Below, piece after piece: positions 48,487 to 54,816 of a stretch of DNA of 64,000 bases. The number at the start of each line of letters is the position of its first letter. Position 1 is the first letter of the stretch. A program made the position numbers and the translations under genes. The notes below the pieces were generated by a model. It did no database searches and was not told the DNA's origin. It saw nothing but the letters and a program-made list of their open reading frames with translations. Source of the DNA: Thermococcus sp. (lineage in GTDB: Archaea; Methanobacteriota_B; Thermococci; Thermococcales; Thermococcaceae); NCBI RefSeq assembly GCF_017656495.1, contig NZ_JACDNS010000002.1, positions 1 to 64,000 of the forward strand, written 5' to 3'.

Positions 48487-48541
48487 GGTCAGGGGCCGAT
48501 TAGGTCATCACAGCTCAGCTACCTACCCTTACATCATCCCG
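48487..48541 (-). ncRNA. Box C/D guide RNA B, convergent with A
   Basis: Read on the minus strand: C ATGATGT (48531-48537, one mismatch), D' CTGA (48515-48518), C' GTGATGA (48505-48511), D CTGA (48489-48492). Both guides are exactly 12 bases with a three-base spacer, the canonical archaeal layout. GGG before box C and CC after box D can form the terminal stem. The D boxes of A and B are only four bases apart on opposite strands. Confidence 0.87.
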
Positions 48542-48547
48542 AAATAT

Positions 48548-49021
48548 TCAAGTTAGGCCTAGTCTTTCCCTGATTTCCAGTGGAATCAGGCCAATTTTTG
48601 GAAAGACGAGCAGAGCTTTTGCCTCAATAGCTTCTTGAGGAACACATGGTAGAATTTCTCCGCCGTATGGATACGGATCAGGTGCAGGGTTGTTGTCTCC
48701 CCAAGTAACGAAGCAGAGTTCTTCTTTACCGTTCAGAACAAGCTTTTCAATTGCCCTAACTCTATGAATTATTGGATATTTAGTATATGGCCTTTTGTAA
48801 ACAACTACATCGCCTATTTTTATGTCCTCCGGCTTGACACCTTTGAGAAGCACGACGTCACCCCTATAGAACACAGGCTCCATTGAACCACTTACAACAA
48901 TGACGAGGGGTGAATCAGTGTGCAAGGCTATTTTTAATCCATTATGAATTGCAAATATGACAATTAGTGAGATTACAATGAACACAAGGTCATTTTTCCA
49001 GTTTTTTATCTTTTCATCCAT
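48548..49021 (-). CDS. Signal peptidase I, archaeal Sec11-type
   Basis: A 157-aa membrane-anchored peptidase that removes Sec signal peptides. An N-terminal membrane helix (about 10-30) is followed by VVSGSMEPVFYRGD with the catalytic Ser, GDVVVYKRP, and YPIIHRVRAIE, where His replaces the bacterial Lys as in ER/archaeal enzymes. WGDNNPAPD near residue 110 is the last family motif. The 5' end overlaps the DUF531 gene by 16 bases, so the two are translated from one mRNA. Confidence 0.93.
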   Translation of the reverse strand: MDEKIKNWKNDLVFIVISLIVIFAIHNGLKIALHTDSPLVIVVSGSMEPVFYRGDVVLLKGVKPEDIKIGDVVVYKRPYTKYPIIHRVRAIEKLVLNGKEELCFVTWGDNNPAPDPYPYGGEILPCVPQEAIEAKALLVFPKIGLIPLEIRERLGLT

Positions 49022-50750: not shown

Positions 50751-51686
50751 ATGATCTTTGACGCCCATTCTGATCTGCCCACTTATGTCTATGATATGCG
50801 AAAAGAAGGAAAGAATAGAGTTCTTGATAGTGAATTCGAGAAGTTCTTTGGAGACTACATAAAAGCTCGTGTCATGGCAGTTTGGACAAGGCCAGATAAA
50901 AGGTGTCAAGCTTTGAGGTATGGGCTTGAGGTTATAAACCAGCTCTACAAAGATGTCCTTGAAAGCGAGAAGTTTGCAGTTGTGACAACTGTTGAAGAGA
51001 TGAGAGAGGCGATTAAAAACGGTAGGGTTGCTCTATGGCTCGGCTTGGAGGGTGGAGAGCCAATAGAGGACAGCTTGGACTTGCTTGAAGTATTTTATGA
51101 GCTTGGATTAAGGATTCTAACATTAACATGGAGCTTAAGGAATGCAATAGGGGATGGCGTCTTTGAGAGAACTAACGGTGGCTTGACTAACTTTGGAGTT
51201 GAAGTTCTTGGAAAAGCCGAGGAGCTTGGAATAGTGATCGATTTAAGCCACATAAACGAGAAGGGCTTCTGGGATGCCCTTGAAACGACAGCCTTTCCAG
51301 TTATAGCTTCGCATTCAAATGCAAAAGCTCTCTGTAACAATAAGAGGAATTTAACAGATGAGCAGATTAAAGCAATAGCTGAGAGGGATGGCGTTATCGG
51401 AGCTGTGGCGATTCCAAGCTTTGTTGACAAAGAAAAGCCGACGCTTGATAAATATATTGAGCACATTGCTTACATGGTTGATTTAGCCGGATACAAGCAT
51501 GTTGGCCTGGGCTTTGACTTTGTGTATTATCTGAAAGGCTGGAAAGGAGACACCATTGAAAGATTTGAGGATGAGAGTAAAATCCCAGCACTTTTAGAAA
51601 AGCTGAATGAGAGGTTCAGCAAAAAGGAAGTTGAAGCAATAGCTTTCAAGAACTTCGAGAGAGTTTTTGAAAGGGTTGTTGGTTAG
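50751..51686 (+). CDS. Membrane-dipeptidase family (M19) metallopeptidase
   Basis: A 311-aa zinc amidohydrolase of the renal-dipeptidase family that cleaves dipeptides, often tolerating D-residues. Metal ligands are visible as DAHSDLP (His6/Asp8), the bridging Glu in GLEGGEP near residue 103, His in DLSHINEKG, and SHSNAKALC. Bacterial and archaeal members usually lack the signal peptide, as here. A poorly translated T-rich stretch and GGTGAT precede the ATG. Its stop lies 23 bases from the convergent TnpB-like gene. Confidence 0.93.
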   Translation: MIFDAHSDLPTYVYDMRKEGKNRVLDSEFEKFFGDYIKARVMAVWTRPDKRCQALRYGLEVINQLYKDVLESEKFAVVTTVEEMREAIKNGRVALWLGLEGGEPIEDSLDLLEVFYELGLRILTLTWSLRNAIGDGVFERTNGGLTNFGVEVLGKAEELGIVIDLSHINEKGFWDALETTAFPVIASHSNAKALCNNKRNLTDEQIKAIAERDGVIGAVAIPSFVDKEKPTLDKYIEHIAYMVDLAGYKHVGLGFDFVYYLKGWKGDTIERFEDESKIPALLEKLNERFSKKEVEAIAFKNFERVFERVVG

Positions 51687-51709
51687 GGGCGGAATTTATT
51701 GTTTGTGTG

Positions 51710-52825
51710 TTATTTTGTTTTCTTTTGCTTCAGTCCTCTGAGGGCTATGAGGTATGCTGATGTTGTGTGCTTGTCTAGTCCTAATTTCCTCTGCAAAGCT
51801 TTTGTTCCGGTAGAAGTTCCAGCGGGATTCACGAAGACAACATTAAGCCCATACAGGGGGGCTTTGTACGCAATCCTCTCAATTACTGAATTCCTGAATG
51901 TGGCAACCTTGTAATTATAATCCTTCCCACACCGTTCACCGTTCCTAATCCAGTAATACTTCAAGTAGCCAAGCACTTTTGGATTTTCAAGAGCAATGGT
52001 TGAAACACCGTGATAATACGCATAACTCAAAACATCGCGAATCCCCTCGCCAAGCAAACTCCATGCCTTTTTCTTCGGAAAACCTCTTGCCGTAATTTCA
52101 GAAAACCAGACCATGTACGTGTCGAGGAGTTCACCACTCCTGTTCACGACAGCAAGGTTTATTCTATCAGTATTTACATCAATTCCACCAACGTTATCAC
52201 CCAAAGGGCTCTCGAATCGCTTCATGACTTCATGGTAAAAGTCAAGACGAATCATGACTTGAATTTCTCCAAAAACATGCATGCTGTGAGGGTAAAAGTT
52301 TGCTTCTTTCACAATAACTCTTGCCGGGTACGCAAACTCCCCACTCACCGAAAGCTCCACAACCCTATCAAGAACCTTCCTGTACCCTCTCGAAAACTTC
52401 ACGTCAAGCATTATCCTCTTAGAATTCTTGGAGTAATCAAAAGTGAGTATTTCCACCTTGTCCTTGTAAAGGCGAATGTTTTGATTCCCCTTCTTGTCCT
52501 TCTCACCCTCGCACTGGAATAAAAGCCAATCCGAAAGCTCAAGCTTTTGAATATCCACCCCAAGCTTTTTCGCTGACTGAAGTGTAGAGTAAACGAGCTT
52601 CGCCATTCCATCAATATACCTCCTGTTGGGGATGAGATCTCTCGCCTGTTTTCTTGCAATAGTTTGAAACTTTCTCTCGTGAAAATCCACAAGGGATGGG
52701 TTCTGTTTTACAAGACTTAAAAGCCGGTGGGCAACTAATTTTGATAACCAAGCTGTAAAGTAAATTCTCCTCGCTTTTTCACCACTTGCTGAGAGAGGAA
52801 TCGTGAGGGTTATGTATTCGGGCAT
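51710..52825 (-). CDS. TnpB-like RuvC nuclease without zinc finger (IS200/IS605 OrfB-related)
   Basis: A 371-aa protein with the three RuvC motifs of the TnpB/OrfB family: GGIDVNTDRINLAVV (Asp, near 216), TIALENPKVLG (Glu, near 287) and LDKHTTSAYLIAL (Asp, near 352). The four-Cys zinc ribbon that usually sits between motifs II and III is absent; only about 20 residues (NPAGTSTGTKALQRK) remain. No TnpA partner or transposon end is visible, and only 23 bases separate its 3' end from the next gene. It could be an immobile or domesticated nuclease. AGGTGA precedes the ATG. Confidence 0.82.
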   Translation of the reverse strand: MPEYITLTIPLSASGEKARRIYFTAWLSKLVAHRLLSLVKQNPSLVDFHERKFQTIARKQARDLIPNRRYIDGMAKLVYSTLQSAKKLGVDIQKLELSDWLLFQCEGEKDKKGNQNIRLYKDKVEILTFDYSKNSKRIMLDVKFSRGYRKVLDRVVELSVSGEFAYPARVIVKEANFYPHSMHVFGEIQVMIRLDFYHEVMKRFESPLGDNVGGIDVNTDRINLAVVNRSGELLDTYMVWFSEITARGFPKKKAWSLLGEGIRDVLSYAYYHGVSTIALENPKVLGYLKYYWIRNGERCGKDYNYKVATFRNSVIERIAYKAPLYGLNVVFVNPAGTSTGTKALQRKLGLDKHTTSAYLIALRGLKQKKTK

Positions 52826-52838
52826 CCTTTCACCTATG

Positions 52839-52866
52839 GGGGTATATACCCCGAAAAGTTTATTAA
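52839..52866. promoter_or_regulatory. Bidirectional promoter and palindrome between tnpB-like gene and ncRNA
   Basis: GGGGTATATACCCC (52839-52852) is a perfect 14-base palindrome. Next to it TTTATTAA (52859-52866) can act as a TATA box both ways. To the left it gives a start near 52836, ten bases before the ATG with AGGTGA in the leader. To the right it gives a start near 52888, where the GC-rich RNA begins. The palindrome would then overlap the leftward transcription start, like an operator. Confidence 0.5.
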
Positions 52867-52886
52867 GTTTTCTGGAGTATCAAATG

Positions 52887-53040
52887 CTGGTGGGCTTGGG
52901 TTTCCGAGAACCGTAGGGTGATGATGCCCCTGGCAACGGGGGTTGAGCTTCTGCGGTGAGGGGGCTCAAGCGTCGCCGTGATGACCCGCCCTGTGTTGGA
53001 GTGATATACTCCGATACAGGACGGGAGAACGGTGGATTTT
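52887..53040 (+). ncRNA. GC-rich structured ncRNA with predicted pseudoknot
   Basis: A GC-rich island in AT-rich DNA. Predicted elements are hairpin CTTGG/CCGAG (52895-52908), CCCC/GGGG (52927-52941), stem TTGAGC/GCTCAA (52943-52969) whose loop GGTGA (52955-52959) pairs with TCGCC (52973-52977) as an H-type pseudoknot, and a 17-pair hairpin at 52985-53025. ACCGT (52910) and ACGGT (53029) close the whole. Wobble pairs work as G-U only on the plus strand, setting the direction. It ends in a T run (53036-53041). It may be one of the known high-GC Thermococcales RNAs, or a TnpB-associated RNA. Confidence 0.7.
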
Positions 53041-53077
53041 TAAACTTCCTCTCTTTTGTTTTTCTAAGGTGACTGAC

Positions 53078-53947
53078 TTGAAGCCTGAGTTTCAAGTTTA
53101 TTTTCTAACCTTTCGAGAGGCACGTAGGGTTCTGCTCTCAAAGGGTGAGGTTAGGTTAAACCTCGATTTGAGGAAAACAAACAGAACTTTTGTTGTAAAA
53201 GTTGAAGAAGACAAGATAATTTTTCCCGATGGGAGTGAAGTTGAGAAGGAAATTATCGAGAAGATAGCAAAAGACGATGGCACAGTTTATTTTGTGAGGG
53301 ATGGGCACGTTTTTAAAGCTGCCATTGCTGGTGAGCACTTCTACAAGCTTGTTCCAACGATCCCGCCAACGATAGAAATTAACGGGATAAGAATGCACCG
53401 AACCAAGGATACGAATCCTCTCTGGGACACGAGAGCTAAGATTAAAGCTGTTGAGCCAAAGGAAGGCGAATTTGTTCTTGACACCTGCATGGGATTGGGC
53501 TACACAGCAATAGAGAGTGCGAAGAGGGGAGCTTATGTGATAACTGTAGAAAAAGACCCAAATGTCATTGAGCTGGCTAGGTTAAATCCTTGGAGCTATG
53601 AGGTCTTTCACTCTCAGAACATTCAAGTAATTCAAGGTGATGTTTTTGAGGTTATCAGGAAGTTTAAGGATGAGACGTTTGATGTGATTATCCATGATCC
53701 TCCAAGGTTTTCACTGGCTGGTGAGCTTTACAGTGAGGAGTTTTATGCTGAACTCTTTAGAATCCTTAAGCCCGGAGGAAGGATCTTCCACTATGTCGGC
53801 AACCCCGGAAAGAAATTTAGGAGAAAAGACCTGCAAAGAGGGGTTATGGAAAGGTTAAGAAAAGTTGGCTTCAAAAATGTGAAGAGGGTAGAGGAAGCAC
53901 TCGGAGTGGTGGCAAGAAAACCGAAAAAGGAGAGTGGAAGGGGCTAA
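53078..53947 (+). CDS. SAM-dependent methyltransferase (COG2521-like)
   Basis: A 289-aa archaeal methyltransferase with an N-terminal domain of about 120 residues and a Rossmann domain. Motif I reads VLDTCMGLGYTAIESA near 137, the acidic strand VEKDPN follows, and the catalytic-loop motif IV is IHDPPRF, the (D/N)PP type found in enzymes methylating nucleobase or protein amino groups. The substrate is unknown. The TTG at 53078, five bases after AAGGTGA, is the likely start; an in-frame GTG at 53069 lies within the ribosome site. Confidence 0.82.
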   Translation: MKPEFQVYFLTFREARRVLLSKGEVRLNLDLRKTNRTFVVKVEEDKIIFPDGSEVEKEIIEKIAKDDGTVYFVRDGHVFKAAIAGEHFYKLVPTIPPTIEINGIRMHRTKDTNPLWDTRAKIKAVEPKEGEFVLDTCMGLGYTAIESAKRGAYVITVEKDPNVIELARLNPWSYEVFHSQNIQVIQGDVFEVIRKFKDETFDVIIHDPPRFSLAGELYSEEFYAELFRILKPGGRIFHYVGNPGKKFRRKDLQRGVMERLRKVGFKNVKRVEEALGVVARKPKKESGRG

Positions 53948-53982: not shown

Positions 53983-54816
53983 ATGAATGTAGTAACTGAA
54001 GTCAAATATGCTCGCTATGGAATGAGTTGCGTTCTGATTGCCTTCGCTTTAAACATTGGTTTTCTAATCTCGCCATTTCCAATAGAAACCCTGCCCACAT
54101 ATCCACTGGTCCTACTTGCACGATACTTCGAACCCTTAGATGCCCCTCTCAGCGCAACACTTCACTTTCTTGCTTTCACTTGGGGCCGATTTATCTGGCT
54201 GATAGTGATATTCGTGGGGGCAATTTGCGGATTGCGTGCAAAAGACGTAGGAATAAGATGGAGCCAATGGAAAAAGGGCGTTCTCGTCACTCTAATTATG
54301 TGGATGATCATCGAAGTGATGCTTGTGGGAAGCGTTTTATTATTGAAGCGCCCCCTATCCTGGAATCCTCTGTGGGGTAAATTAACTCCGGCAGCGGTAA
54401 CAGCCATAGTGATTTACTATTTCTTGGGGGTAGCGCTGTTTGAGGAGGTATTCTACAGGGGCTTTATGGTACCGCAGTTCTTTCACGCATTTCAAAACCG
54501 CTTTTCAAAACAGAGTCTCGTTTTAGCCGTGTTAGTATCCCAACTCCTGTTTGCATTGAGCCATATCCCCCACTACCAGATGCCATTCCCCCTACCGATA
54601 GGATTGGGAATACTATGGCTTTCAGGCGTCCTTTTGGCTTGGATGTGGCTACGTACAGGCAATCTGGTCATAGCCATTGGCTGGCATGGGCTGATGGATT
54701 TTCCACTTCACCTTGTAGCGGCTCCTCCAAACGTACCTGAAGGGATCACTTTCTTGGTTGGAATTCTACTATTGATTGTGTGGCCCTTCCTCGATAGACA
54801 TTTGCCGCAAACCTAA
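53983..54816 (+). CDS. CPBP family intramembrane metalloprotease
   Basis: A 277-aa polytopic membrane protein of the Rce1/CPBP (Abi) family. The conserved motif EEVFYRGF lies near residue 155, and a His-bearing helix ALSHIPHYQ near 190 and WHGLMDFP near 232 complete the likely metal site. Homologues cleave prenylated proteins, process peptides or give bacteriocin immunity. Of ten Arg codons seven are CGN, unlike the AGA/AGG preference of most neighbours, hinting at horizontal acquisition. Its 5' region follows the methyltransferase stop by 35 bases. Confidence 0.86.
   Translation: MNVVTEVKYARYGMSCVLIAFALNIGFLISPFPIETLPTYPLVLLARYFEPLDAPLSATLHFLAFTWGRFIWLIVIFVGAICGLRAKDVGIRWSQWKKGVLVTLIMWMIIEVMLVGSVLLLKRPLSWNPLWGKLTPAAVTAIVIYYFLGVALFEEVFYRGFMVPQFFHAFQNRFSKQSLVLAVLVSQLLFALSHIPHYQMPFPLPIGLGILWLSGVLLAWMWLRTGNLVIAIGWHGLMDFPLHLVAAPPNVPEGITFLVGILLLIVWPFLDRHLPQT

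What the first reader, a model, noticed from the sequence alone, without database searches (positions are those of the whole stretch)
52887..53040. Pseudoknotted GC-rich RNA divergent from the TnpB-like gene
A hairpin of 17 pairs, an H-type pseudoknot and a long-range closing helix are all predicted, with G-U pairs valid only on the plus strand and a terminal T run. Its 5' end coincides with the expected start from a promoter shared with the nuclease-like gene. Usual TnpB guide RNAs lie at the 3' end of tnpB on the same strand, so a divergent RNA would be a new arrangement. Two GTGATGA segments may allow L7Ae binding.
Basis: partly seen in the sequence, partly recalled or inferred. Interest (0 to 1): 0.68.

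Follow-up and report, generated by a model that had tools for sequence, protein, structure and literature searches.

The report
Divergent guide-type RNA of inverted TnpB
In heat-loving archaea, a small mobile DNA element carries a TnpB-like (Cas12-ancestor) gene turned backwards, and a conserved structured RNA at the element's other end is read in the opposite direction with the hallmarks of the usual TnpB guide RNA, so guide and protein are here two separate, divergently read genes.

Summary
The RNA is real: 52889-53032 (+), fold z = -7.4, plus-strand specific, supported by compensatory changes (18 of 44 pairs, 0/500 shuffles), no Rfam match. It is one end of a mobile element (51690-53032). 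Empty sites in relatives show clean insertion after GGGG without target duplication, and show that the 'terminal T run' is host DNA. The other end is the 3' side of the TnpB-like gene, so the gene is inverted and the RNA sits at the right end, pointing out, where omegaRNA lies in ordinary IS200/IS605 elements. All intact close relatives of the protein found (46-93% identity, two in another archaeal family) have this RNA divergently. A second subfamily (12 of 13 RNA copies) has its own divergent RNA at its element end, with a GCC target motif. True HgcC RNAs (Rfam RF00062) at three loci are also divergent from a zinc-finger TnpB; HgcC-like RNA elsewhere is the ordinary sense omegaRNA. Solo RNA copies look like internally deleted elements. 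Best reading: a divergently transcribed omegaRNA whose guide is the right flank, with a 3'-terminal kink-turn (probable L7Ae site). Not shown: expression, binding, cleavage (RuvC-III reads DxH). The pseudoknot is not supported.

The parts
51686..51689 (+). GGGG target / TAM-like motif abutting the left end (host DNA)
   Evidence: Empty site TTAGGGG|TGGATTTTTAAAC in G002; GGGG at 8 of 10 distinct insertion sites, background 0.0038
51690..53032 (.). Mobile element, 1343 bp: left end, inverted TnpB-like gene, divergent promoter region, RNA ending at the right end
   Evidence: Precise insertion relative to G002 and G004, no target duplication, no loss; same unit in G003
51690..51709 (.). Left end (LE), 3' side of the TnpB-like gene
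   Evidence: 'CGGAATTTATTG...' resembles the LE of solo copies ('CAGAAACCTTTATTAG', 'CAGAAATTTTTATTGG') and of L131 ('GGGG|CAGAAACG')
51710..52825 (-). TnpB-like protein, 371 aa; RuvC residues D216, E280, D351-x-H353; no zinc finger
   Evidence: TIGR01766 E 5e-5, TNB domain E 0.003, Cas12f models E 1e-4; Foldseek best hits Cas12f/Cas12k, E 1e-5 to 1e-6, on a low-confidence model; dN/dS about 0.3 against G003
52839..52852 (.). Palindrome GGGGTATATACCCC in the divergent promoter region; contains a TATA-like core for the TnpB-like gene
   Evidence: Seen directly; conserved in L131 (GGGTATATACCC), nearly so in G003; role inferred
52859..52866 (+). TATA-like box TTTATTAA, about 26 nt before the RNA 5' end
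   Evidence: Seen directly; TTTATAA at the same place in G003, L131 and L019
52889..53032 (+). Divergent structured RNA (proposed omegaRNA scaffold)
   Evidence: Model R1 hit 145.7 bits; covariation; one difference in 144 nt to G003, where the protein gene differs at 52 of 1116 sites
52894..52971 (+). Helix P1 (52894-52905 with 52960-52971) enclosing P2 and P3
   Evidence: 7 of 12 pairs change on both sides
52926..52943 (+). P3 hairpin with GNRA tetraloop GCAA at 52933-52936
   Evidence: Loop is GCAA/GCGA/GUAA/GUGA in the copies that have P3
52976..53032 (+). 3'-terminal hairpin with kink-turn: CCGU-GAU-GA ... A-GA-ACGG; RNA and element end here
   Evidence: Sequence reading; copies L012-L015 give the textbook form CCGU-GAU-GA-CC..GG-GA-ACGG; stem covaries
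53033..53052 (+). Right flank (host), proposed guide: TGGATTTTTAAACTTCCTCT
   Evidence: Homology between copies stops at GAACGG; lies next to GGGG in the G002 empty site; guide role inferred
53069..53947 (+).
   Evidence: Pfam methyltransferase domains; motif present in empty sites

Best explanation
The feature is the omegaRNA (reRNA-type guide RNA) of an IS200/IS605-like element whose tnpB-like gene is inverted. A shared promoter region drives the TnpB-like protein toward the left end and, divergently, a ~144-nt RNA toward the right end. The RNA folds into P1, P2, P3 with a GNRA loop, and a 3'-terminal kink-turn hairpin whose last bases are the last bases of the element. Transcription runs past the right end, so about 16-20 nt of flanking DNA become the guide. 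The protein, probably with L7Ae on the kink-turn, uses it to find the empty site (GGGG then the guide match) and cleaves or marks it, so the element is kept. Shown: element limits, clean insertion after GGGG, RNA structure and covariation, conserved linkage, inverted gene, no stable structure at the usual sense position. Inferred: transcription, binding, guide use, L7Ae binding. Open: whether the protein cuts, since RuvC-III reads DxH.
For: (1) Covariation: 18 of 44 pairs changed on both sides, 0/500 shuffles, 88% paired against 38-45% when slid (the alignment was fitted to the model). (2) Linkage: a model built without them finds the RNA divergent from the gene in L019 (46% identity, E 1.6e-4) and L131 (E 5e-13), and weakly at L135, a second-subfamily protein (E 0.004). 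(3) Geometry: three empty sites show insertion without duplication; GGGG precedes LE at 8 of 10 sites. (4) Second subfamily: 12 of 13 RNA copies lie divergent from a TnpB-like gene; in five empty sites the element falls after GCC (ACC once), no duplication. (5) Both arrangements in one RNA family: true HgcC is divergent from a zinc-finger TnpB in L038-L040, HgcC-like RNA is sense at tnpB 3' ends in L047, L048, L051. (6) The sense 3' end of the window gene is unstructured, z +0.59. (7) Precedent: the ISDra2 reRNA ends in ~16 nt of flank and works next to a TAM (PMC8612924).
Against: No expression data for this RNA. The protein lacks the zinc finger, and the residue aligned with the canonical third aspartate is His (D351 lies two before it), so it may not cut. 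No Y1 transposase gene in G000, G003, G026 or G035, so mobility is unexplained and may be past. Many solo copies (L011-L015 type) have lost P1 and fold poorly, so the RNA is not under strong selection there; ends alone may explain their spread. Guide length and processing are unknown. AF2 confidence is low (pLDDT 57.5).
Confidence: 0.72

Rival explanations
1. The RNA is an omegaRNA-type scaffold, but the protein is a nuclease-inactive or weakened TnpB: the particle binds guide-matching DNA and represses transcription (as nuclease-dead TnpB-derived or Cas12m-like proteins do), for example at its own insertion site or promoter. This is a variant of the best explanation, not exclusive of it.
For: RuvC-III DxH and no zinc finger; D351 is Ala in L133. 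Cas12m2 with a non-canonical RuvC triad binds but does not cut (PMC10442227). The gene is under selection (dN/dS about 0.3) although no TnpA is in the genome.
Against: D216, E280 and D351 are conserved in both main subfamilies, so an alternative triad is possible; TnpBs with rearranged sites are known (own knowledge). Empty sites show real mobility, which fits ordinary TnpB maintenance.
Confidence: 0.3
2. The RNA-like segment is only the structured right end of a transposon, recognised as single-stranded DNA by a transposase in trans; RNA folding is incidental and the solo copies are plain MITEs.
For: Solo copies spread with both ends; several have broken P1; subterminal hairpins are normal in IS200/IS605 (own knowledge).
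Against: TnpB-linked copies keep a 120+ nt multi-helix fold with a kink-turn, a strong strand preference (RNA + -81 against - -50), and only one difference in 144 nt between G003 and the window while the gene differs by 4.7%. An own TATA-like box sits at the right distance.
Confidence: 0.13
3. A housekeeping or L7Ae-binding non-coding RNA (Hgc/SscA, H/ACA or C/D type) that lies next to the gene by accident.
For: GC-rich, kink-turn-like, archaeal; solo copies in Pyrococcus-like genomes.
Against: No Rfam match at E < 5 at the RNA beyond chance hits; absent from 89 of 94 genomes of the family; inside a mobile element with empty sites; linked at all four intact loci.
Confidence: 0.03
4. A regulatory RNA that controls TnpB-like expression from the shared promoter region without acting as a guide.
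For: Shared divergent promoter region with a conserved palindrome GGGGTATATACCCC.
Against: The RNA does not overlap the gene, and the palindrome lies outside it; regulation alone does not explain an RNA 3' end exactly at the element end or the GGGG/GCC target motifs.
Confidence: 0.07

Closest known systems
IS200/IS605 TnpB with omegaRNA/reRNA (ISDra2; PMC8612924)
   Same: RNA at the right end pointing outward, conserved motif 5' of the left end, insertion without duplication, flank in guide position, TnpB/Cas12f-related protein
   Different: tnpB-like gene inverted, RNA transcribed divergently from its own promoter and not part of the tnpB mRNA, no zinc finger, DxH in RuvC-III, no TnpA in the genome
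HgcC RNA (Rfam RF00062) of Thermococcales
   Same: Multicopy GC-rich RNA of TnpB elements; found here divergent from a zinc-finger TnpB in L038-L040; P. furiosus HgcC reported antisense to a transposase gene, T. kodakarensis HgcC1-3 sense (PMC4247193)
   Different: Different RNA family: the HgcC model does not match the window RNA and model R1 does not match HgcC; different end (GGTCAG) and a distant TnpB clade
RAGATH-18 reRNA with IS607 TnpB (PMC11061315)
   Same: Independent structured RNA with a kink-turn paired with a TnpB, RNA separate from the coding sequence
   Different: The RNA lies downstream of tnpB; mostly Firmicutes, IS607; different sequence
P. abyssi sRkB/sRkC/sRk52 transposase-related RNAs (PMC3124441)
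   Same: L7Ae-binding kink-turn RNAs of orphan OrfB elements, repeated in the genome
   Different: They match the sense 3' end of the orfB gene
Cas12f / Cas12m effectors
   Same: Predicted fold and weak sequence match; Cas12m shows that non-canonical RuvC sites can bind without cutting (PMC10442227)
   Different: No CRISPR array found in the element; a single linked RNA; Cas12m2 has an HDD site, not D-E-DxH

Membership tests
TnpB-omegaRNA (OMEGA) system of IS200/IS605 | TnpB-family protein (RuvC-type, WED/REC) | tested here: met
   Weak but consistent matches: TIGR01766, TNB domain, Cas12f, all below curated cut-offs; Foldseek Cas12f/Cas12k
TnpB-omegaRNA (OMEGA) system of IS200/IS605 | Canonical D-E-D RuvC site and zinc-finger TNB | tested here: not met
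   D216, E280 present; canonical third D aligns with H353 (D351 two before); no CxxC motifs
TnpB-omegaRNA (OMEGA) system of IS200/IS605 | Structured RNA ending at the right end of the element | tested here: met
   RNA 3' end equals element end at 53032 and in other copies
TnpB-omegaRNA (OMEGA) system of IS200/IS605 | omegaRNA sense to, and overlapping, the tnpB 3' end | tested here: not met
   RNA is divergent; sense 3' end has z +0.59
TnpB-omegaRNA (OMEGA) system of IS200/IS605 | Conserved TAM-like motif 5' of the left end, no target duplication | tested here: met
   GGGG 8 of 10 sites; empty sites; GCC in subfamily 2
TnpB-omegaRNA (OMEGA) system of IS200/IS605 | Y1 transposase TnpA of the family | tested here: not met
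   PF01797 absent from G000, G003, G026, G035; many archaeal tnpB elements also lack it (own knowledge)
TnpB-omegaRNA (OMEGA) system of IS200/IS605 | RNA-protein particle with flank-derived guide, TAM-dependent DNA targeting | not testable with these tools
   Needs biochemistry
HgcC (RF00062) | Match to the Rfam covariance model | tested here: not met
   No hit in the window, even at E < 5 near the RNA; none in G000
Hgc/SscA, H/ACA, C/D RNAs | Match to an Rfam model | tested here: not met
   Only chance hits (SNORA61, MIR173) far below their thresholds
L7Ae-binding kink-turn RNA | 3-nt bulge followed by tandem G-A pairs between two stems | tested here: met
   By sequence reading: CCGU-GAU-GA..GA-ACGG, textbook in L012-L015; the long form (window) has an extra A. 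Binding itself not tested

The most novel reading that the evidence does not exclude
An OMEGA architecture has arisen at least twice in archaea (HgcC/zinc-finger TnpB, and the DxH TnpB-like clade) in which the guide RNA is an autonomous gene divergent from an inverted tnpB. This frees the guide from the tnpB mRNA, so that deleted solo elements become trans-acting guide RNA loci served by one protein: a layout resembling a nuclease with dispersed guide genes, a conceivable step toward CRISPR-like organisation.
Probability: 0.3. Interest if true: 0.87.

Novelty: new variant of a known kind. Interest (0 to 1): 0.73.

Why it matters
Every TnpB guide RNA I know of is sense to and downstream of tnpB. 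A conserved divergent arrangement in three archaeal lineages means that surveys looking only at tnpB 3' ends miss such guides. It also suggests what HgcC, an RNA with no assigned role, is. Because guide and protein are already separate genes with separate promoters, the system is a natural two-component, heat-stable test case for how TnpB and omegaRNA became uncoupled, as in CRISPR-Cas12. The DxH RuvC site makes it a further test of whether such TnpBs cut or only bind.

Tried and rejected
Housekeeping RNA: no Rfam match. Identity with HgcC: rejected by both models. T run as terminator: host DNA by empty sites. Sense omegaRNA at the tnpB 3' end: no structure. First kink-turn (first GTGATGA): not conserved. 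Pseudoknot UUGAGC/GCUCAA: not kept in L003 (inspection only). PDB profile search with the proteins: no hit. Viral contigs: no relatives; genome contigs returned only one locus, an Archaeoglobaceae MAG that carries the same protein as L019. AF2 on two sequences gave a weak model (pLDDT 57.5), so I draw no active-site geometry from it. The sigma-70 scan is irrelevant in archaea. Tree of TnpB types: clades clear, but long branches meet, so the number of inversions is not settled by it. No paper found describes a divergent omegaRNA; most subscription papers are not covered.

Full report
Observation. The region was refolded and compared. Window 52887-53040 folds at -83.5 kcal/mol, z -7.4, no shuffle as good. 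The + strand is far more stable than the - strand (-81.3 against -50.2). Rfam gives nothing at gathering level and only chance hits at E < 5. A covariance model from five copies sets the limits at 52889-53032.

What the RNA looks like. Conserved parts are P1 (52894-52905 with 52960-52971), P2, P3 with a GNRA loop (GCAA, GCGA, GUAA or GUGA in copies that have P3), and a 3' hairpin with a kink-turn (CCGU-GAU-GA ... GA-ACGG). On 16 sequences 88% of cells pair, 18 of 44 pairs change on both sides, no shuffle of 500 reaches the observed values, and slid structures pair only 38-45%. This alignment was fitted to the model, which leans toward the structure.

It is one end of a mobile element. In G002 and G004 the dipeptidase end is followed directly by TGGATTTTTAAAC. 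The window therefore carries an insertion, 51690-53032, placed after GGGG with no duplication and no loss. The 'T run' belongs to the host side and probably serves as the TATA box of the methyltransferase gene. G003 has the same element at the same place.

Solo copies. G026, G035 and G007 carry further RNA copies without a TnpB-like gene within about 1.5 kb, or as far as the contig reaches. Those with a readable left end begin with CAGAAACCTTTATTAG or the like, resembling the window's left end at the 3' side of the gene, and end with GAACGG (GAACTG in L100). They look like internally deleted elements. Empty sites for two of them (L012 in G029; L013 in G007 and G029) again show clean insertion. 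GGGG precedes the left end in 8 of 10 distinct sites, against 0.4% by background.

The linked protein. The 371-aa protein gives weak but consistent TnpB/Cas12f matches, and Foldseek of a low-confidence model puts Cas12f and Cas12k first. D216 and E280 fit RuvC-I and -II. RuvC-III reads D351-K-H353, and there is no zinc finger. Against G003 dN/dS is about 0.3.

Conserved linkage. The model, built without them, finds the RNA divergent from the gene in two genomes of one genus in another archaeal family (L019, protein 46% identical, E 1.6e-4; L131, E 5e-13); the named record with the L019 protein is an Archaeoglobaceae MAG. L131 also has the left end GGGG|CAGAAACG. A second subfamily (25-30% identity, in several loci with a small RHH-like gene in front) has its own divergent ~220-270-nt RNA in 12 of 94 genomes of the window's family, counting a 59-nt remnant in G029; 12 of the 13 full copies lie next to the gene, the other at a contig end. 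Its RNA ends at the element end with a kink-turn GGGG-AAU-GA..A-GA-CCCC. Five empty sites show insertion after GCC (ACC in one relative) without duplication. L135, a second-subfamily-like protein in G183, has an RNA that model R1 recognises weakly (E 0.004), a bridge between the two.

A decisive comparison. HgcC (RF00062) loci were checked. In L038, L039 and L040 HgcC is divergent from an intact zinc-finger TnpB with DRD in RuvC-III. In L047, L048 and L051 an HgcC-like RNA is sense at the tnpB 3' end, the ordinary omegaRNA place. So one RNA family occurs in both arrangements. HgcC expression is published: T. kodakarensis HgcC1-3 sense, P. furiosus HgcC antisense to a transposase gene (PMC4247193).

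Mechanism. In ISDra2 the guide RNA ends in about 16 nt of flanking DNA and the TAM lies 5' of the left end (PMC8612924). The geometry here is the same at both ends; only the gene is turned round. The sense 3' end of the gene is unstructured (z +0.59). I conclude that the RNA is a divergently transcribed omegaRNA with the right flank as guide. Transcription, binding and targeting are inferred. Cutting is uncertain because of the DxH site. L7Ae binding is likely by analogy with P. abyssi sRkB/sRkC/sRk52 (PMC3124441) but untested.

Limits. No transposase TnpA is in G000, G003, G026 or G035. The paper library lacks most subscription papers, so earlier description of a divergent omegaRNA cannot be excluded.

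Noticed in passing
L038, L039, L040 (HgcC at about 1500-1628 in HgcC orientation): True HgcC RNA (Rfam RF00062) starts about 60 nt from the start codon of an intact zinc-finger TnpB on the opposite strand; in other loci of the family an HgcC-like RNA is sense at the tnpB 3' end. HgcC is thus probably an omegaRNA family in two arrangements.
   Followed up: partly
G000:C8:33300-34954 (own genome, outside the window; L029, L077): A second-subfamily TnpB-like element with RHH-like gene and divergent ~220-nt RNA in the same genome.
   Followed up: partly
window 52839-52852: Palindrome GGGGTATATACCCC in the divergent promoter region, conserved in L131 (another archaeal family); possible operator or TATA element of the TnpB-like gene.
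   Followed up: no
L003-L016, L100: Solo RNA copies come in mosaic forms (different 3' hairpin stems, P1 intact or broken), as if copies recombine; L014 and L100 share CACTTCAT just past the right end.
   Followed up: no
window 48487-48541 (-): Rfam sR36 C/D box RNA just downstream of a gene whose product looks like a signal peptidase (48548-49021, by eye).
   Followed up: no
window 53033-53069: The element inserted directly before the TATA-like box of the methyltransferase gene, so RNA read-through would enter that gene; effect on its expression unknown.
   Followed up: no
window 53983-54816: CAAX-protease (Rce1-like) membrane protein next to the methyltransferase gene.
   Followed up: no
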